From positions 1-7,411 of the forward strand of contig DATKZS010000151.1 of the NCBI GenBank assembly GCA_035527835.1: DNA of 7,411 bases. Reading direction: 5' to 3'. Below, piece by piece: positions 1 through 7,411 of this stretch (its first letter is position 1; each line of letters opens with the position of its first letter). Source of the DNA: DATKZS01 sp035527835 [NCBI: bacterium] (GTDB lineage: Bacteria > RBG-13-61-14). Both the position numbers and the translations under genes were made by a program. The notes below the pieces were generated by a model, which was not told the DNA's origin, did no database searches, and worked only from the letters and a program-made list of their open reading frames with translations.

Positions 1-18
1 GGGCCGCAAAGAAACATC

Positions 19-3000
19 ATGATTTACTTGGCGACCCTTGACGCTCTTGGCGTCTTGGCGGTTTTCTTAGCGCCTATTTTGGACAAGAGTGATATAACGT
101 CAGAAATGATGGAACGCGCGGAACACAATGGAAGCCGCTTCGAGCAGGCGGCCGGGTTTAGCCCGGATCGGGCGGACTATTACGCGGGCATTTTCATGCT
201 GGTCACGCTGGTGGTTTTTTTCGCGCCGGCGCTTTTGGGCGGCGGCGTGTTTTATTTCCGGGACATCTGCTCGGAGATCGTCCCGAAGCGTACGTTCCTG
301 GTTGGTTCGGGGTGGCGGGTATTATGGAACCCTTATACCTTTTTCGGTCTTCCGCTGGCGGCGAACATGCAGGAGGGCGCGTTTTACCCGCTGAATTTCA
401 TTTTTCACCTGGGGTGGGTGCCGCGGGCGCTGAGTTTTTACATCCCGCTGCATTTCGCCATCGGCCTGTTTTTCTGCTACGCGCTCTTGCGGGGCCTGAA
501 GCATTCGGCCGTCGCGGCGGCGGCGGGGGCGCTGGCGTTCGCTTACGGCGGTTTTTCCATGTCGCTGGGCAACCAGGTGGTGGTTCTGAACTCGGCGACG
601 TGGATCATGCCGCTCTTGTGGGCGGCGGCGCGGGCGTTACGGACGGGGCGCAAGGGGTTCGTGGTCTGGGCCGGTATTTTCTGGGCGGTGCAGGTCTTGG
701 GTGGCGAGCCGGAGATCGCGTATCTGTCGGGCCTGGTGCTGCTCATTTTCGTGGCGGGTCTGATCGTTTCCGGCGATCCGGGTCTATCCGTCAGGGATGC
801 GGCGCGGCGGGGCGTGATCGTCGCGGCGGGAGCGGGGGCGCTGGCGGTTGGCCTTTCCGCGGGGCAGTGGCTGCTCACGTTGGAGCTCACGGGCCTGTCG
901 AACCGGGCGGGCGGGCTTGGCCTGGAAGAAGTGATGAGGTGGTCGCTGGAGGTCAAGGCGCTGGCGACGCTGGTGGCGCCGAACTACATCATGGACCTTT
1001 CCACGAACAAGTGGTGGGCGCTCGGGTTCCGGAACTCGCAGCTGCCGTACCTGTTGTCGGTGTACCCGGGCGTGAGCGCCCTTTTTCTCGCCCTGCTCGG
1101 GCTCTCGCGCCGGCGGCGGGATGTATGGGTGTTCGCGGCCGGGTCGGTGACGTTCATCGTGCTGAGCCTGGGCGCGGCCGGGGGCCTTTATAAGATATTT
1201 TATTACGCGCTGCCGGGCTTTGACCGGTTCCGGTTCCCGGAGCGGATGATGTACGGGTTCGCGGCGCTGTTTCCGCTGCTGGTCGCCTCCGGGGTTACCA
1301 GGCTCCTGGAATGGGGGGGCGGCGCGAAGGAGGAAGGCGCGCCGTCTTCCAGGCGTTACATGATGTTACTCGGCTTCATGCTGCTGGCGGCGGCCTTGAT
1401 GGCGGTCGTGCTTTTTGTCCGCTCCCCCGCCGCTCCGCAAAGTTCGGCTGATTACTACGCGTATCATCTCGAGCTGTTGCGCCGGTCGGGACTTAGATCG
1501 GCCCTGTTCATCATTCTGAGCTGCGCCTTGCTGGTGATGACGCGGCTTTCCTCCCGGAGCATGGGCCGGCTGGCCGGCCTCGCGGTCTGCCTGGTCATTT
1601 TCCTGGACCTTTACTCGGCGCACCGCTACGTGTGCCCGACCACGGGCCCGGATTTTTATGACCTGAAGGGGAACCAGGCCCAGGGGCTTCCGGGCGGGGG
1701 CCGGGGGCTTCGGGTGCTGTTGTTTCTGCCGGACAGCCCGGCGGAGCTGAAGCTGGGCGCGGGGCGGACGGCCCTGGAGTTTTACCGCCAGGACCGGTTG
1801 CGCCTGCAGGGTTTTACCGCGCTCGAGCTCGGGATCAGGGAGGCGGGCAGCCGAAGCTCGTTTTACCCGGAAGACGTTGATAAGTGGATCACGCTTCTGA
1901 ACCGGATGCACGAGCGGCTGATGGCGCTGGGCGGGGTGCGGTGGGGTCTGAAGCCGGGCTACGCGCCGGTGGAGATCAAGGACGCGCTGCCGCGTGCGTT
2001 CGTGGCGCCGGAGGCGCGGTGGTTTCCGGACCAGGCCTCGGTGCTTAGGGCGCTTGAAGACCCGGGGTTTGACGGCAAGTCAGTCGCGTATCTTGAGGGC
2101 AGTCCTCCGAAGCAAGCGCCGCCGCGGCTGGACAACCTGTTCTGGCCGATGAAGATCATGCGGGACGATAACCAGGATGTGGAGGTCCTGGTCGAGAACA
2201 AGCACTCCGGTTACCTGGTTCTGCTTGATTCGTTTTATCCGGGCTGGCACGCCCGGGTGAACGGGAAGGAGGTCCCGATCTACCGGGCCAACGGCTTTTT
2301 CCGGGCGGTCCCGGTCGGGCAGGACGGGGGCCGGGTCGAGTTTTACTACCGTCCCGTTCGGTTGTGGGCGGGGCTGATACTCAGCGGTTCCTGCCTGCTG
2401 CTTTGCCTGGTGATATTGCTGAAGGGCCGGGCGGAGTTGGCGTGGTGGGCGGGCTGGGCGGTGATCCTGGTCATCCTGCCGATGGACGACGGCGGGACCA
2501 CGTATCTTCCGGTGACGGCCCTCCGGATCATGGCGCTGGTCATGTGCGCGGCCTGGGCGTGGCGGCCGGGCGCCTGGGTAGAGCCGCGTTTTTACCGGAC
2601 GCGGCTGGACGCCTGGATCATGGGTTTCTGGTTCCTGGCCGCGGTGGCGCTTTGGCGCAGCGCGTATTTTTACATCTCGTTTTACTGGTACCTCAACATC
2701 TTCACCCTGGTCCTGCTCTTCTACTTCACGGTGCAGTTCACGGCGGGCGAGGGCGCGGGCGCGCGGCGGGCGCGCGGTATTTTGCTGCTGCTGACCGCGG
2801 GGTACGCGGCGCAGGCGGCGTGGGCGGTGGCCGAGTCCGTGGGCAAGGCCGAGCGGGCGTCGGCGGGGTATTTTAACCCGGGTTTTTTGGCGGGGGCGCT
2901 GATGGCGGTGAGCCCGTATGCGCTGGCCCGGGCGCTTGGGGCGGCCAGGCAATGGGCCGCCCGCCCGGAGGGGCGGGAAGGGATCGCGGCCAAGGCCTCT

Positions 3001-4506
3001 CCCACCGTGTTTTGGGCGGCCGTGTTTTTGCTGCTGGGCGCGGGGATCGTGGCCACCCAGAGCCGGGCGGTGGTGGTCTGGCCGGCGGCGCTCATGCTGG
3101 TGGGCCTGCCGGGGGTGGAGGGGGTGCTGACGGCGCGGGGGTACTCGGCCGGGCGGGCGCGGCGGCTGGCGCTGGGGACGCTGGCGGGAGGCCTGGCGGC
3201 CGCGGCCGTGGCGCTGGCGGTGGTCCCGAACCCGTTAAAGGAGCGGGCGCGCATTATCGGGCATGACCCGTACGCCTTCGAGCGGGTGCGCATCTGGGAG
3301 AGCGGTCTTCGGATGATCAAGGACCACCCGCTGGGCACGGGTCTCGGGATGTACAAGTATTATTTTCATCCTTACAATTTTCCGGTGGACCAGGTGATGG
3401 CGGGCCGGTACGAAAAGCGCGCAACGGACGCGCACCACGAATACATCGGGCTGGCTGCGGAGATGAGCCCGCTGGCGCCGCTGCTGCTTATCGTTTTGGC
3501 GGTCATGCTGGTGCTGGGCGGGTGGAAGGCGGGCCGGGCCGGGCCGCGTCAAGCCGAGGTCCTGGGCGCGGCGGCGGGGGTCCTGGCCATCGCGCTGCAC
3601 GCTTGGTTCGACTCGAACCTGCACAACCACTCGATCGCGGTGCTGGCGGTGGTCCTTTCGGGCCTGTTGGTGAGCGAGCTCGGGCGGGGGAGGGACCAGT
3701 GGACGTTTCCGCTCACTCCGGGCGCGCGCGGCAAATGGCCGATCCGCGTCTTGTTCGCCCTGCTCCTGGCCGGAGGGACCGCGGGCTATGGTTACCTGGG
3801 CTGGAGCTACGGCCTTATGTTCAAGGCCTCGGAGGAGCCTGACCCGGAGGCCGCGATGCTCCGGCTCCTGGATACGGCCAAGTACGCGGCGGGCAACGCC
3901 ACGCACTTCAAACAACTGGCCCAGGAGCTTTCCGCCCAGTACCTGAGCTCCGGGAACCTCGATCTTCTGAGCCAGGCGCTCAAGGCGGAGGACACGGGAA
4001 TCCGGCTCAACCCGGCGGACCCGGGGCTTAGGGAGCTCCGGGGCAAGAGCCTGTTCGAGCTGTACCGGGCCACCGGCCAGGCCGCGCTGCTTGATCGGGC
4101 GCGCGCGGCCTTTAACGAGGCGCTGGCCCGGGACCCGTTCGACGTGGACTCGGTGCTGAGCCTGGCCACGCTCGCGCGGCGGGCGGGCGGCCGGGAAGAG
4201 GAGGTCAAGCTGCTGGGCCGGGCGCTGGAGCTGGAGCCGTACGACCTGGCGGCGCGGCTCCGGCTGGCTCGGGCCCTCTTCGAATCCGGGCAAAAGGCGG
4301 AGGCCCGCCAACAGATGGAGGAGCTCGCGTCCCGGCGAAGGGAGATCATGGAGAGGGAGCGGGAGAAGCCCGCGGCCTTTGTGACGGCTTACCGGCAAAA
4401 GCGGATCAGGGTGGACGAGAACGAGCTCGCGGAGCTGCAACGGTTGGTAAGGGATGCCGCGGCGGGGCCGGGACCGCGGGGCAAGGTGAACCGGGCCGCG
4501 CCATGA
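19..4506 (+). CDS. YfhO-type glycosyltransferase / O-antigen ligase-like / TPR fusion membrane protein
   Basis: Three parts in order in 1495 residues. (1) About 57-802 is YfhO-like: a first membrane helix, then YFRD with Asp82 in the first outer loop, WNPYTFFGLP from W103, a GGEPEIA segment, PGFDRFRFPER from P399, about a dozen helices, a soluble region, then the family's terminal signature FYPGWHARVNGKEV (W743) and FYYRPVRLWAG (F775) before a last helix. (2) About 808-1266 is an O-antigen ligase/polymerase-like membrane domain with TQSR (1013-1016), RVRIW (1089-1093), GTGLG (1106-1110) and AHHEY (His1139, His1140) in a large outer loop. (3) About 1275-1440 is TPR-like helices, then a charged helical tail. 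Known YfhO proteins work with CsbB-type enzymes to add sugars from polyprenyl phosphate outside the membrane; WaaL/Wzy enzymes move or polymerise polyprenyl-diphosphate glycans. The exact substrate is unknown. The fusion is unusual. The frame is open to base 1, so the true start is uncertain: 19, 106 and 109 are candidates. Confidence 0.85.
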   Translation: MIYLATLDALGVLAVFLAPILDKSDITSEMMERAEHNGSRFEQAAGFSPDRADYYAGIFMLVTLVVFFAPALLGGGVFYFRDICSEIVPKRTFLVGSGWRVLWNPYTFFGLPLAANMQEGAFYPLNFIFHLGWVPRALSFYIPLHFAIGLFFCYALLRGLKHSAVAAAAGALAFAYGGFSMSLGNQVVVLNSATWIMPLLWAAARALRTGRKGFVVWAGIFWAVQVLGGEPEIAYLSGLVLLIFVAGLIVSGDPGLSVRDAARRGVIVAAGAGALAVGLSAGQWLLTLELTGLSNRAGGLGLEEVMRWSLEVKALATLVAPNYIMDLSTNKWWALGFRNSQLPYLLSVYPGVSALFLALLGLSRRRRDVWVFAAGSVTFIVLSLGAAGGLYKIFYYALPGFDRFRFPERMMYGFAALFPLLVASGVTRLLEWGGGAKEEGAPSSRRYMMLLGFMLLAAALMAVVLFVRSPAAPQSSADYYAYHLELLRRSGLRSALFIILSCALLVMTRLSSRSMGRLAGLAVCLVIFLDLYSAHRYVCPTTGPDFYDLKGNQAQGLPGGGRGLRVLLFLPDSPAELKLGAGRTALEFYRQDRLRLQGFTALELGIREAGSRSSFYPEDVDKWITLLNRMHERLMALGGVRWGLKPGYAPVEIKDALPRAFVAPEARWFPDQASVLRALEDPGFDGKSVAYLEGSPPKQAPPRLDNLFWPMKIMRDDNQDVEVLVENKHSGYLVLLDSFYPGWHARVNGKEVPIYRANGFFRAVPVGQDGGRVEFYYRPVRLWAGLILSGSCLLLCLVILLKGRAELAWWAGWAVILVILPMDDGGTTYLPVTALRIMALVMCAAWAWRPGAWVEPRFYRTRLDAWIMGFWFLAAVALWRSAYFYISFYWYLNIFTLVLLFYFTVQFTAGEGAGARRARGILLLLTAGYAAQAAWAVAESVGKAERASAGYFNPGFLAGALMAVSPYALARALGAARQWAARPEGREGIAAKASPTVFWAAVFLLLGAGIVATQSRAVVVWPAALMLVGLPGVEGVLTARGYSAGRARRLALGTLAGGLAAAAVALAVVPNPLKERARIIGHDPYAFERVRIWESGLRMIKDHPLGTGLGMYKYYFHPYNFPVDQVMAGRYEKRATDAHHEYIGLAAEMSPLAPLLLIVLAVMLVLGGWKAGRAGPRQAEVLGAAAGVLAIALHAWFDSNLHNHSIAVLAVVLSGLLVSELGRGRDQWTFPLTPGARGKWPIRVLFALLLAGGTAGYGYLGWSYGLMFKASEEPDPEAAMLRLLDTAKYAAGNATHFKQLAQELSAQYLSSGNLDLLSQALKAEDTGIRLNPADPGLRELRGKSLFELYRATGQAALLDRARAAFNEALARDPFDVDSVLSLATLARRAGGREEEVKLLGRALELEPYDLAARLRLARALFESGQKAEARQQMEELASRRREIMEREREKPAAFVTAYRQKRIRVDENELAELQRLVRDAAAGPGPRGKVNRAAP

Positions 4507-4523
4507 CATACAATAAACGATAA
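4503..4523 (+). other. six-codon mini-ORF bridging two genes (possible translational coupling)
   Basis: The ATG at 4503 overlaps the TGA stop of the upstream gene (ATGA). It opens a frame reading MTYNKR that ends at TAA 4521-4523. The last base of that TAA is the first base of the next gene's ATG (TAATG). No Shine-Dalgarno-like sequence precedes 4523. Ribosomes finishing the large gene could reinitiate on this short frame and again at 4523. The overlaps are seen directly; the coupling role is inference, and such an arrangement could arise by chance. Confidence 0.35.
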
Positions 4524-5422
4524 TGGGCAAACGTGTTGCCATAGCGCTTTTTCTGCTGGCGGCGGTCCTGGAGTTGCAGCGGGAGGTTGACGTGCTGAAA
4601 ACGGATTTCATCTTGACGGCGAACCGTCCGTTCGTGCCGCCGCTGGCCCAGGGGGTGAAGCTGGCGTCGCTGGGATACCAGACGGTGGTGGCGGACATGT
4701 ACTGGCTGCGGACCATCCAGTACCGCTCGGCCCGCGACGACCGCAAGCAGTATCCGGCGGACCTTTACGCGATGGGTGATTTCATCACGGACCTCGACCC
4801 GCGCTACCACCTGGTTTATTTTTTCACGGGGCTGAACATCATGTTCGAGGGCGGCCCCAAGGAGCAGGTCATCGCGATCCTGCAAAAGGGCGAGAAGAAC
4901 TGCCCGGACTATTGGCGGACGCCTTTTTTGCTGGGTTTTTATTATTTCATGATATTGGAGGACTACGAGGACGCGGCGGCGCATCTGGAAAAGACGGCGG
5001 AGATCACCAAAAATAAATTTCACTCGCTGCTGGCGGCGCGGGTGCGGGCCATGGGGGGCGACCCGGAGACGGCCATCGCTTTTCTCGATGAGATGAAGAA
5101 GCAGACGCAGGACGCGCGGAGCATCCGGCTCTTTGACCGGCGGATCCAACAGTTGCAGGCGAAGGTCCTGGAGGGGAAGCTGAGCGCGCTGGTGGAGGAG
5201 TATCACGCGCGGCGGGGCTCGTATCCGTCGGACTTCGAGGACCTGGTGGCGGCGGGCCTGCTCCGCCAGGTCCCGCCTCATCCGGTTCCGGGCCATGCGT
5301 TCGTCTATGACGCGGAGAAGAAGATAGTAGGGAGCGATCCGCCGCTCGACCTCGAGGTCCACGATTTCTGGAAGCTCAAGCACCGCCGCCAGGCCTGGGC
5401 CGATCCGGGGGAAGGAGGATGA
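4523..5422 (+). CDS. signal-anchored TPR-like protein of unknown function
   Basis: This 299-residue protein starts with MGKR and a short hydrophobic stretch (about residues 4-18), which suggests a signal anchor and export to the periplasm. Residues about 33-63 carry a motif rich in LASLGYQ, VVADMYWLR and IQY. A LDPRYHLVYFFTGL segment begins at L91. Both resemble a family of TPR proteins found near ABC transporters and glycan genes in deltaproteobacteria and candidate phyla (recalled, not searched). Residues about 112-210 are helical TPR-like repeats (LLGFYYF, EDYEDAAAHLEKTAE, GDPETAIAFLDEM). Residues about 216-272 form a separate end piece with the pattern L...VEEYHARRGSYPSDFEDLV..GLL..VPPHP....FVYD, similar to the C-terminal part of type II pseudopilin-like proteins. 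The stop lies two bases before the ATPase start, so the genes are probably co-translated. Its likely role is a scaffold or partner; no catalytic residues are recognised. Confidence 0.8.
   Translation: MGKRVAIALFLLAAVLELQREVDVLKTDFILTANRPFVPPLAQGVKLASLGYQTVVADMYWLRTIQYRSARDDRKQYPADLYAMGDFITDLDPRYHLVYFFTGLNIMFEGGPKEQVIAILQKGEKNCPDYWRTPFLLGFYYFMILEDYEDAAAHLEKTAEITKNKFHSLLAARVRAMGGDPETAIAFLDEMKKQTQDARSIRLFDRRIQQLQAKVLEGKLSALVEEYHARRGSYPSDFEDLVAAGLLRQVPPHPVPGHAFVYDAEKKIVGSDPPLDLEVHDFWKLKHRRQAWADPGEGG
5412..5418 (+). promoter_or_regulatory. strong ribosome binding site that decides the ATPase start
   Basis: AAGGAGG lies here, inside the last codons of the upstream gene. It sits six bases before the ATG at 5425 but directly abuts the ATG at 5419, so 5425 is the preferred start. 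The permease start at 6390 has the same six-base spacing from its own GGAGG, which supports this choice. Confidence 0.75.
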
Positions 5423-5424
5423 CC

Positions 5425-6393
5425 ATGTCCGGCATGGACCATGAAGCGGTGATCAGCATTCGCGGCCTGACCAAGACCTTTTACCTGGGCTTTTTCCGGC
5501 GCAAGGTGGAGGCGCTCCGGGGGGTTGACCTCACGGTGCGGCCGAATGAGATCCTCGGGTTCCTGGGGCCGAACGGCGCGGGCAAGACGACGACGATCAA
5601 GGTCCTGATGGGGATCATCTATCCGAGCTCGGGCGGGGCCTCGATTCTGGGGGCGCCGGTGGGAGACGTGAAGACCAAGCAGCGGATCGGGTTCCTGCCG
5701 GAGCAGCCGTACTTTTATGATTATTTGAAGGGCCGCGAGTTCCTGGATTTTTACGCGCGGATCCACGGGCTCAAGTCCGCGGAGCGCAAGCGCAGGGTGA
5801 AGGAGCTGATGGAGCGGGTGGGGGTGGCCTACGCCGCGGACCTGCCGCTGCGCAAGTACTCGAAGGGGATGCTGCAGCGGGTGGGTCTGGCGCAGGCGCT
5901 GCTTGGCGACCCGGAGGTGGTGATCCTCGATGAGCCGATGTCGGGTCTCGACCCGCTCGGCCGGCGCGACATCCGGGAGATCATCTTCGGCCTGAAGGAG
6001 GAGGGCAAGACGATTTTTTTCAGCACTCACATCCTTCCCGACGTGGAGCAGATTTGCGACCGGGTGTGCATCATCCATAAGGGCAAGATCCGGGACACGG
6101 GGACCCTCTCGGAGATTCTGAAGCCGGGGGTGGAGATGGTGGACCTCCAGTTTTCGGACCTTGACGACGCGGGGGCTATGGAGCTGGGCTCGCTCTCCGG
6201 CCGTTTCCCGGGGCTCCGGGTGATCCGGAAGGGCGGGCTTTGCCTGGTGAGCGTTCCGGGCTGGGAGGCCGCGGACGAGGCCGAGAGAGTGGGCCGGGAC
6301 CGGGGCGGACGCCTGGTGATGCTCGCGCCGCAAAAGGAGACGCTGGAGAACTTTTTCCTCCGCGAGATCGCCGAAGGGGGAGGGAAGTCATGA
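5425..6393 (+). CDS. ABC transporter ATP-binding protein (ABC-2 exporter type)
   Basis: This is a complete ABC ATPase of 322 residues counted from 5425. Visible motifs are Walker [10 protein letters not shown] (48-56, Lys54), Q-loop Gln94 in FLPEQP, signature YSKGMLQR (Ser146-Gly148), Walker B VVILDEP (Asp169, Glu170), D-loop SGLD (173-176) and switch His202 in STHIL. The SKGM form of the signature and the tail of about 90 residues ending in [11 protein letters not shown] are typical of ATPases that pair with ABC-2 permeases such as the NosF or GldA types. It would sit on the inner side of the membrane and power export by the permease encoded next, whose ATG overlaps its stop (ATGA). It lacks an obvious Wzt-like carbohydrate-binding domain, so a classical O-antigen exporter is less likely. 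An upstream in-frame ATG at 5419 would give 324 residues, but it has no room for the ribosome binding site. The substrate is unknown. Confidence 0.95.
6379..6383 (+). promoter_or_regulatory. ribosome binding site of the permease gene
   Basis: GGAGG within a purine-rich run lies six bases before the ATG at 6390, inside the end of the ATPase gene. It supports 6390 as the start rather than the longer in-frame ATG at 6240, which lies deep inside the ATPase gene. Confidence 0.7.
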
Positions 6394-7166
6394 AGCTGTG
6401 GGCGATCGCTTACAACACGTTTAGGGAGGCCATCCGGGACCGCGTGCTCTACAATCTGCTGGCGTTCGCGGTGCTGATGATCGGGCTGGCGGTGGCGCTG
6501 GGCCGCTTGTCCATCGCGGAACGGGCGCGGATCACGGTGGACGTCGGGCTGTTCTCGATCTCCATCTTCGGCGTGCTCATGGCGATCTTCCTGGGCATCG
6601 GGCTGGTGAGCAAGGAGATCGAGAAGAAGACGATCTATACCCTGATCGCGAAGCCGGTGCCGCGCTGCCTCTTCATCCTGGGCCGCTTCTGCGGGCTGAT
6701 GATCACCATCGGCGTGAACATGGTGATCATGACGGCGGCGTTCGTGGTGGTGCTGTGGTACAACCGGGAGGCGCCGGGGTGGCCGCTGACCTGGCCCATC
6801 GGACAGGCCATCATCATGACCTATGTCGAGCTCGGGATCATCACCGCCGCGGCCATGGTCTTCTCCACCTTCAGCACCCCGACCCTCTCCGCCATCTTCA
6901 CGCTGTGCTTCGTGGTGATCGGAAGGCTCACCGCCGGGCTCAAGCTCCTGATCTCCAGGGAACAGAGCCCGGCGGCGTGGTGGGCCGCGGACATCCTTTA
7001 TTACCTGGTGCCCAACCTCACCAACTACGTGCGCATCGAGGCCGCGGTGTACGGCGAAGGGCTCGCGCCCGACCTGTTCCTCAGGATCATCTTGATCGGC
7101 GCGCTCACCGCCGCCTTCCTCCTCGCCATCGCCATCGCCATTTTTCAAAGGCGGAATTTTGTCTGA
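6390..7166 (+). CDS. ABC-2 type transporter permease
   Basis: The 258-residue protein begins [22 protein letters not shown], a common N-terminus of ABC-2 permeases in which an amphipathic helix leads into the first membrane helix. About six hydrophobic helices follow. After the second comes the signature KEIEKKTIYTLIAKPVPR and then FILGRF, typical of the NosY/GldF-like ABC-2 group. The last helix ends in FQRRNFV, also typical of this group. Length matches the usual 250-280 residues. It would form the membrane channel for the ATPase encoded immediately upstream, probably as a dimer, and export an unknown substrate. Its stop overlaps the TTG start of the next gene by eight bases. The sequence does not resemble the Wzm O-antigen exporter closely enough to assign that role. 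Confidence 0.92.
   Translation: MKLWAIAYNTFREAIRDRVLYNLLAFAVLMIGLAVALGRLSIAERARITVDVGLFSISIFGVLMAIFLGIGLVSKEIEKKTIYTLIAKPVPRCLFILGRFCGLMITIGVNMVIMTAAFVVVLWYNREAPGWPLTWPIGQAIIMTYVELGIITAAAMVFSTFSTPTLSAIFTLCFVVIGRLTAGLKLLISREQSPAAWWAADILYYLVPNLTNYVRIEAAVYGEGLAPDLFLRIILIGALTAAFLLAIAIAIFQRRNFV
7147..7154 (+). promoter_or_regulatory. probable ribosome binding site for the TTG-started gene
   Basis: AAAGGCGG lies inside the last codons of the permease gene. Its AAAGG core ends seven bases before the TTG at 7159. This is a reasonable though not perfect Shine-Dalgarno match, and it supports that rare start codon. Confidence 0.5.
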
Positions 7167-7411
7167 TCCTGGGGCAGATACCGGCCCCGCCACCGGGGCA
7201 CGGCGCGTCGAGACCGCGGCGCTCATCGCGCTCGTCTTCGCGCGCCTGCTCTGGTCCGGGAGCATCCATCAGGACGCCGGCTTCTTGAATAACGCGCTCC
7301 TGGCCCTGGTGCTGGCCGCGGTGATCTTGAGACGGCCGCGGCCCCGCCTGCCCGGCCGGGCCCTGGCCGCGGGAGCGGCGCTTTATTTCGCCGCCGCCTT
7401 CATCTCGGTTT
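7159..7411 (+). CDS. N-terminal part of a multi-pass membrane protein, possibly O-antigen ligase-like (runs off the window)
   Basis: A frame opens at TTG 7159 and stays free of stops to the last base, giving at least 84 residues. It starts with a polar, probably cytoplasmic tail (SDPGADTGPATGARRVE). A first hydrophobic segment follows (AALIALVFARLLWSG), then a helix NNALLALVLAAVILRR, a basic loop RRPRPRLPGR, and a further helix ALAAGAALYFAAAFISV. Two helices split by a basic proline-rich loop are common at the start of O-antigen ligase/polymerase proteins, and the first gene here already has such a domain, so that identity is plausible but unproven. It could be another polytopic protein. In this frame a stop at 7093 lies upstream and no ATG or GTG occurs before 7159, so TTG is the best start. 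The eight-base overlap with the permease gene suggests the same transcript. Confidence 0.65.
   Translation, partial: MSDPGADTGPATGARRVETAALIALVFARLLWSGSIHQDAGFLNNALLALVLAAVILRRPRPRLPGRALAAGAALYFAAAFISV

What the first reader, a model, noticed from the sequence alone, without database searches (positions are those of the whole stretch)
2200..2560. YfhO and O-antigen ligase-like domains fused through a loop of about six residues
The YfhO end signature (W743, F775-G785) and its last helix (about 783-802) are followed by KGRAEL. The first helix of the O-antigen ligase-like domain then begins, with no stop or linker domain between. The basic loop fits an inner-side position, so both halves keep their expected topology. 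These two enzyme types are normally separate proteins. Joining a polyprenyl-phosphate-sugar enzyme to a polyprenyl-diphosphate-glycan enzyme suggests a coupled modify-then-transfer step in surface glycan assembly.
Basis: partly seen in the sequence, partly recalled or inferred. Interest (0 to 1): 0.65.

Follow-up and report, generated by a model that had tools for sequence, protein, structure and literature searches.

The report
Two sugar-transfer membrane enzymes, one protein
A bacterial gene encodes one long membrane protein that joins a sugar-adding enzyme to a glycan-transferring enzyme, which suggests, without proving it, that a surface sugar chain is decorated and then handed on by a single protein.

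Summary
One open frame (nt 1-4503, stop 4504-4506) encodes a YfhO-like glycosyltransferase (frame residues about 35-808), a basic six-residue link KGRAEL (808-813, nt 2422-2439), an O-antigen-ligase-like domain (about 814-1235), one more helix and a TPR tail. A YfhO-like profile built without the window matches residues 35-808 end to end; a ligase profile built without it matches 897-1235. The two phosphate-binding Arg and catalytic His of WaaL (7TPG R191, R265, H313) are kept as R1022, R1095, H1145. Codon usage is continuous across the junction. Predicted topology fits a link on the inner side and a periplasmic TPR tail. Planctomycetota, the only phylum open to search, showed no second copy in capped listings of 294 and 392 genomes. 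One YfhO-like protein there carries a marginal AlgX-like domain instead, and in 1 of 20 neighbourhoods the two enzymes are separate genes of one polysaccharide cluster. The window's own genome is not held, so rarity is unmeasured. 'Decorate, then transfer' is a reasonable inference; the donor of the YfhO half and the acceptor of the ligase half (polymer, lipid A-core or protein) are open. New variant of known kinds, moderate interest.

The parts
106..2421 (+). YfhO-like GT-C-type glycosyltransferase half (frame residues 36-807); true start unsettled (ATG 19, 106 or 109)
   Evidence: profile without the window matches residues 35-808, 457 bits; Pfam YfhO 717-795; alignment A1
262..264 (+). D88, invariant Asp of the first outer loop, presumed GT-C catalytic Asp (role recalled, not tested)
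   Evidence: invariant in 14 of 14 rows of A1
2245..2247 (+).
   Evidence: invariant in 14 of 14 rows of A1
2365..2421 (+). last transmembrane helix of the YfhO half, residues 789-807
   Evidence: hydropathy scan; helix 785-807 in a low-confidence model
2422..2439 (+). junction KGRAEL, residues 808-813, predicted cytoplasmic
2437..2484 (+). first helix of the ligase half, residues 813-828
   Evidence: hydropathy scan segment 810-828; alignment A2; outside the profile match
2440..3705 (+). O-antigen-ligase-like (Wzy_C superfamily) domain, residues 814-1235
   Evidence: profile without the window matches 897-1235; Pfam Wzy_C 1007-1155; 814-896 by hydropathy and alignment only
3064..3066 (+). R1022, counterpart of R191 in 7TPG (diphosphate-binding Arg)
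3283..3285 (+). R1095, counterpart of R265 in 7TPG
3433..3435 (+). H1145, counterpart of H313 in 7TPG (proposed acceptor-activating His)
3742..3798 (+). extra helix 1248-1266 leading to the TPR tail, predicted on the outer side
   Evidence: hydropathy scan
4207..4335 (+). TPR region (TPR_19, residues 1403-1445; weaker TPR similarity from about 1350)
4504..4506 (+). stop codon of the fused gene

Best explanation
The gene encodes one bifunctional inner-membrane protein. Its first half is a YfhO-like GT-C-type glycosyltransferase that adds a sugar, on the outer face, to a lipid-linked glycan. Its second half is an O-antigen-ligase-superfamily enzyme that takes that glycan from polyprenyl diphosphate and transfers it on, with a periplasmic TPR tail that probably holds the acceptor or a partner. 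The fusion keeps decoration and transfer at one place in the membrane. Shown: the single open frame, the two domains, kept active-site residues, a topology prediction that fits, continuous codon usage. Inferred: activity of both halves, the identity of donors and acceptor, the order decorate-then-transfer, the TPR role.
For: Matches of both halves by profiles that leave the window out and Pfam hits over cut-off for both. R1022, R1095 and H1145 match the residues named for WaaL structure 7TPG in PMC10920833 (passages; 7TPG matched by the A2 profile, which includes the window, E 2.7e-17; positions). D88 invariant in 14 of 14 rows. Hydropathy and charge fit an inner-side link and an outer-side TPR tail. 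The same two enzyme types sit as separate genes in one cluster with a flippase-like protein and glycosyltransferases in L095. A review describes, for one SCWP pathway, GT-C decoration of lipid-linked subunits thought to come before polymerisation and attachment, by separate proteins (PMC8035078, passages).
Against: No activity data. No second instance of the architecture was found. The structure model was poor (mean pLDDT 48.1), so no fold comparison supports either half. The ligase profile match starts only at 897. The YfhO half may use another donor (PMC10584680). The two halves could act independently. A ligase gene lay near a YfhO-like gene in only 1 of 20 neighbourhoods. The contig is short and reads could not be inspected.
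Confidence: 0.5

Rival explanations
1. True fusion, but the two halves act on different glycans or act independently; joining only fixes their stoichiometry or co-expression.
For: YfhO of B. subtilis and L. monocytogenes is reported to act on LTA or WTA polymers (PMC7389260, passages), not on the substrate of a ligase. In Planctomycetota one YfhO-like protein is followed in the same frame by an AlgX/SGNH-like region (L056; ALGX 26.7 bits, cut-off 26.5), so YfhO tails may accept various partners.
Against: Both halves are predicted to face the same side and belong to families that use polyprenyl-carried sugars, and separate versions occur in one cluster in L095.
Confidence: 0.28
2. The second half is a protein O-oligosaccharyltransferase (PglL/PglS type) or a Wzy polymerase, not a lipid A-core ligase; the first half decorates the glycan before it is put on a protein or polymerised. 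(Overlaps with the best explanation, which leaves the acceptor open.)
For: The ligase profile also matches a solved oligosaccharyltransferase (9rmk, E 6.4e-6). PglS carries RfaL and Wzy_C domains and a periplasmic C-terminal domain (PMC12800693, passages). A TPR tail suits a protein partner.
Against: The match to WaaL 7TPG is stronger (E 2.7e-17), and sequence alone does not separate these functions.
Confidence: 0.35
3. Artefact: two neighbouring genes joined by an assembly or sequencing error, or read as two products by internal initiation (for example TTG 2437 with AAGGG ten bases before).
For: The contig may be only as long as the window (7411 bases), reads are not held, and no relative with this fusion was found. 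The TTG has a passable ribosome-binding sequence. GC differs between the halves, 0.646 and 0.699.
Against: An error would have to fall in frame between the end of one domain and the start of the other and keep codon usage. No promoter-like site was found at 2100-2700.
Confidence: 0.08

Closest known systems
YfhO (PF09586), B. subtilis/S. aureus/L. monocytogenes YfhO of the CsbB-GtcA-YfhO teichoic acid glycosylation system
   Same: Family match over cut-off, C-terminal signature, large C-terminal region before a last helix, loop-1 Asp
   Different: Here a second enzyme follows the last helix. The window half was compared with YfhO-like proteins of Planctomycetota; its relation to B. subtilis YfhO and to the separate YfhO-like group of PMC10584680 was not tested
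WaaL O-antigen ligase (PF04932; 7TPG; CAZy GT121)
   Same: Wzy_C domain over cut-off; both diphosphate-binding Arg and the catalytic His kept; a 12-helix core is compatible with the hydropathy
   Different: No free N-terminus; extra helix and TPR tail; lipid A-core acceptor not shown; GT121 membership not tested
Ligase-TPR proteins such as L081 (612 residues, Wzy_C plus TPR, unnamed planctomycete genome)
   Same: Same order of Wzy_C then TPR, 27% identity, the highest of the 9 ligases aligned
   Different: No YfhO half
YfhO-AlgX/SGNH fusion L056 (1317 residues)
   Same: A YfhO-like half with about 500 residues added after its last helix
   Different: The added part matches AlgX marginally (26.7 bits, cut-off 26.5), not a ligase

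Membership tests
YfhO (PF09586) | Pfam gathering score | tested here: met
   36.7 bits against 28.5, but over model positions 756-835 only
YfhO (PF09586) | Full-length similarity to YfhO-like proteins | tested here: met
   457 bits over residues 35-808 with the window row left out. Rows were picked for similarity to the window and not all were checked against Pfam; one that was, the gene of row L014, scores 27.0, just under the Pfam cut-off of 28.5
YfhO (PF09586) | GT-C Asp in the first outer loop | tested here: met
   D88 invariant, 14 of 14 rows; its role is recalled
YfhO (PF09586) | GT-C fold | tested here: inconclusive
   The only model holds just the C-terminal part of this half and is of low confidence; profile search of the PDB gave no relevant hit
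YfhO (PF09586) | Transfer of a sugar from polyprenyl phosphate | not testable with these tools
   needs an assay
O-antigen ligase superfamily (PF04932 Wzy_C) | Pfam gathering score | tested here: met
   44 bits against 31.7, positions 1-140 of 149
O-antigen ligase superfamily (PF04932 Wzy_C) | Two diphosphate-binding Arg and the catalytic His | tested here: met
   R1022, R1095, H1145 against 7TPG R191, R265, H313; the mapping was read from printed alignments
O-antigen ligase superfamily (PF04932 Wzy_C) | 12 helices with the long outer loop after helix 9 | tested here: inconclusive
   The scan called 10 helices in this half, where 13 (12 plus the extra one) are expected; three were placed by eye, after which the count fits
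WaaL proper (CAZy GT121) | Assignment to the GT121 clade and lipid A-core acceptor | not tested
   no GT121 model on hand
PglL/PglS-type O-oligosaccharyltransferase | Protein acceptor | not testable with these tools
   needs glycoproteomics

The most novel reading that the evidence does not exclude
A single-chain decorate-and-transfer enzyme: the YfhO half adds a sugar to a polyprenyl-diphosphate glycan, and the ligase half, in the same chain, accepts only or mainly the decorated glycan, so that decoration acts as a checkpoint for transfer.
Probability: 0.2. Interest if true: 0.65.

Novelty: new variant of a known kind. Interest (0 to 1): 0.42.

Why it matters
Bacterial YfhO-like proteins form a large, functionally dark group (PMC10584680, passages). 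A natural fusion to a polyprenyl-diphosphate-glycan transferase is a clue to the substrate of at least some of them: it suggests a lipid-linked glycan on its way to a ligase, polymerase or protein glycosylase. It would also allow both steps to be assayed in one purified protein.

Tried and rejected
Searching the window's own genome: not held. The one genome-contig scan with the whole protein gave only a TPR match in a Planctomycetota MAG, which served as the door to that phylum; no other phylum was reached. Viral contigs: no relative of the whole protein; one weak ligase relative (L088), not used. Plasmids: one YfhO hit covering 9% of the query (Microvirga).

Over-long frames as candidate fusions: the truncated listing shows 12 distinct frames of 1200 residues or more. 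11 were fetched (some cut at the 5' side) and their 3' ends read; in 10 of 11 the YfhO match ends 3-51 residues before the frame's end, and in 1 of 11 (L056) about 500 residues follow, with a marginal AlgX match (26.7 bits, cut-off 26.5). The twelfth owes its length to a masked run of N.

ATG 2482 as the start of a separate ligase: rejected because it would remove the first helix and has no Shine-Dalgarno-like sequence. A type IV pilus link through the neighbouring ABC genes (idea: PilGHI, recalled) was not confirmed: PMC6060248 reports that PilGHI resemble ABC transporters, without supporting experiments (passages). In one Manganitrophus plasmid the related genes lie near a prepilin, PilM and a secretin.

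The structure prediction of residues 727-1501 from the single sequence was of low confidence (mean pLDDT 48.1, pTM 0.28), so no fold search was run and the second prediction job was not used. No paper in the held library has both 'YfhO' and 'O-antigen ligase'. Four have 'YfhO' and 'Wzy': of two, passages were seen (PMC7389260; PMC8035078), of the other two (PMC12826051, PMC7117936) the listing only. Four have 'YfhO family protein': of one, passages were seen (PMC10584680), of three the listing only. The listings show no such fusion in titles or abstract starts.

Full report
What is there. Frame +1 is open from the first base of the window to a stop at 4504-4506. Pfam gives YfhO at 717-795 (36.7 bits, cut-off 28.5), Wzy_C at 1007-1155 (44 bits, cut-off 31.7) and TPR_19 at 1403-1445 (29.9 bits, cut-off 25). 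The Pfam YfhO match covers only the end of the model. I therefore built profiles from relatives with the window row left out: 13 YfhO-like proteins match the window over 35-808 (457 bits), and 9 ligases match it over 897-1235 (102.7 bits). The rows had been picked by similarity to the window, so these scores show extent, not independence. The YfhO match stops at residue 808, where the link KGRAEL (808-813, nt 2422-2439) begins. Residues 814-896, the expected first helices of the ligase, lie outside the ligase profile match and rest on hydropathy and the alignment.

Is the junction real? Frame 1 has no stop at 2200-2700, while frame 2 has seven and frame 3 one. Third-position GC is 0.80-0.87 per 60 codons through residues 661-900. 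Codon usage correlates 0.93 between the halves; the same measure is 0.90 within the YfhO half, 0.87 within the ligase half and 0.91 between the neighbouring quarters at the junction. Against this, GC is 0.646 in the first half and 0.699 in the second. Several of the 13 stand-alone YfhO-like relatives end soon after the last helix in a basic tail, as in LRPRR, RRRRTS and GRPLTT; others have longer tails. Several of the stand-alone ligases have a short N-terminal stretch before the first helix. My reading is that the fusion put six residues in place of both tails. No promoter-like site was found at 2100-2700; one terminator-like match at 2647 is about what shuffles give (mean 0.7, sd 0.8). The proposed separate start ATG 2482 would remove the first ligase helix. 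TTG 2437 has AAGGG ten bases before it, so some internal initiation cannot be excluded. Reads are not available.

Active sites. In alignment A2 the ligase residues R1022 and H1145 are invariant in 10 of 10 rows and R1095 is nearly so (90% or more). The A2 profile matches the WaaL structure 7TPG with E 2.7e-17, and a solved oligosaccharyltransferase, 9rmk, with E 6.4e-6; the window is one of the ten rows of that profile. [quoted passage not shown] read from the printed alignments these are R1022, R1095 and H1145. In the YfhO half D88 and W749 are invariant in 14 of 14 rows; that the loop-1 Asp is the GT-C catalytic residue is recalled.

Topology. The hydropathy scan finds the last YfhO helix at 789-807, then 810-828 as the first ligase helix. 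It helices in the second half. With three more placed by eye (near 926-944, 959-978 and 1024-1038), the long loop that holds R1095 and H1145 falls outside, the charged stretch after 1227 inside, and the TPR tail outside. The single-sequence structure model is too weak to add to it (mean pLDDT 48.1), although it shows helices 785-807 and 811-825 parted by three residues.

Relatives. The window's genome is not held, and the one scan of species genomes gave a Planctomycetota MAG. That phylum was the only one reached. With the whole protein, 101 of 294 genomes match at E 1e-6 or better. With the ligase core, 13 of 392 match at E 1e-4 or better. Among open frames of 150 residues or more in the loci then held, 80 match the YfhO profile, 30 the ligase profile and none both; these counts hold repeats and partial frames, since some places were fetched more than once. 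Of the 12 distinct frames of 1200 residues or more in the truncated listing, 11 were read: 10 end 3-51 residues after the YfhO match, and one, L056, goes on for about 500 residues with a marginal AlgX match (26.7 bits, cut-off 26.5). The twelfth owes its length to a masked run. A search of the 4 genomes in the class of G093 with a junction-spanning query gave YfhO-side matches only (3 of 4 genomes). I then took 20 neighbourhoods of YfhO-like genes from 16 genomes, nearly all from the top of the listing, up to 19.5 kb each and some cut by contig ends; 1 of 20 (L095) also holds a ligase. Its order is Polysacc_synt (flippase-like), YfhO-like (27.0 bits, just under the Pfam cut-off), glycosyltransferase, Wzy_C ligase, PMT_2, glycosyltransferase, SPASM protein. 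So the two enzyme types can serve one cluster as separate genes, which fits a shared task, but one case in 20 is thin.

How it may work. In B. subtilis and L. monocytogenes YfhO is thought to move a sugar from a C55-P carrier to LTA or WTA (PMC7389260, passages). For one Wzx/Wzy-type wall polymer a review describes lipid-linked subunits that are thought to be further glycosylated outside by a GT-C system before polymerisation and attachment (PMC8035078, passages). The fused protein would do the decoration and the transfer in one chain. Two cautions apply. PMC10584680 (passages) describes 4,889 bacterial sequences annotated as uncharacterised YfhO in InterPro, most of which cluster apart from B. 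subtilis YfhO and are linked to STT3/PglB, so the donor of this half is not certain. And PglS, a protein glycosylase, has RfaL and Wzy_C domains and a periplasmic C-terminal domain (PMC12800693, passages), so the TPR-tailed second half may act on a protein.

Novelty. Each half is a known kind. I found no report of the combination: no paper in the held library has both 'YfhO' and 'O-antigen ligase', and the four with 'YfhO' and 'Wzy' show no such fusion in what I saw. This does not cover protein databases, where such proteins may be listed without comment. I rate it a new variant of known kinds with moderate interest.

Noticed in passing
4523-5422, 5419-6393, 6387-7166: A TPR-like membrane protein, an ABC ATPase and an ABC-2 permease. 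In Planctomycetota I fetched 18 of the 21 places with a relative of the first gene: 16 of 18 also hold a relative of the ATPase and/or the permease (the two without are contigs under 5 kb), and in 10 of 18 all three stand in the order ATPase, permease, TPR-like; none of the 18 showed a YfhO-like or ligase gene. In 4 of the 16 the first gene's relative was not found again at the cut-off. The first gene has no Pfam family over cut-off.
   Followed up: partly
L061 (Candidatus Manganitrophus plasmid CP114559.1), 6001-9013: Relatives of the window's ATPase (37%), permease (30% over 101 residues) and TPR-like gene (25% over 106 residues) stand in a row near a prepilin, a secretin and PilM.
   Followed up: partly
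L056, 1278-5228, minus strand: A YfhO-like protein of 1317 residues that goes on into an AlgX/SGNH-like region (26.7 bits, cut-off 26.5): perhaps another case of a second domain added after the last YfhO helix.
   Followed up: partly
7159-7411: A further reading frame overlaps the permease gene and runs off the window; it has no Pfam family over cut-off.
   Followed up: no
1-105: The first 35 codons lie outside the YfhO homology, fall in a stretch of lower third-position GC and hold a hydrophobic stretch; they may be a real N-terminal helix or the end of an upstream frame.
   Followed up: partly
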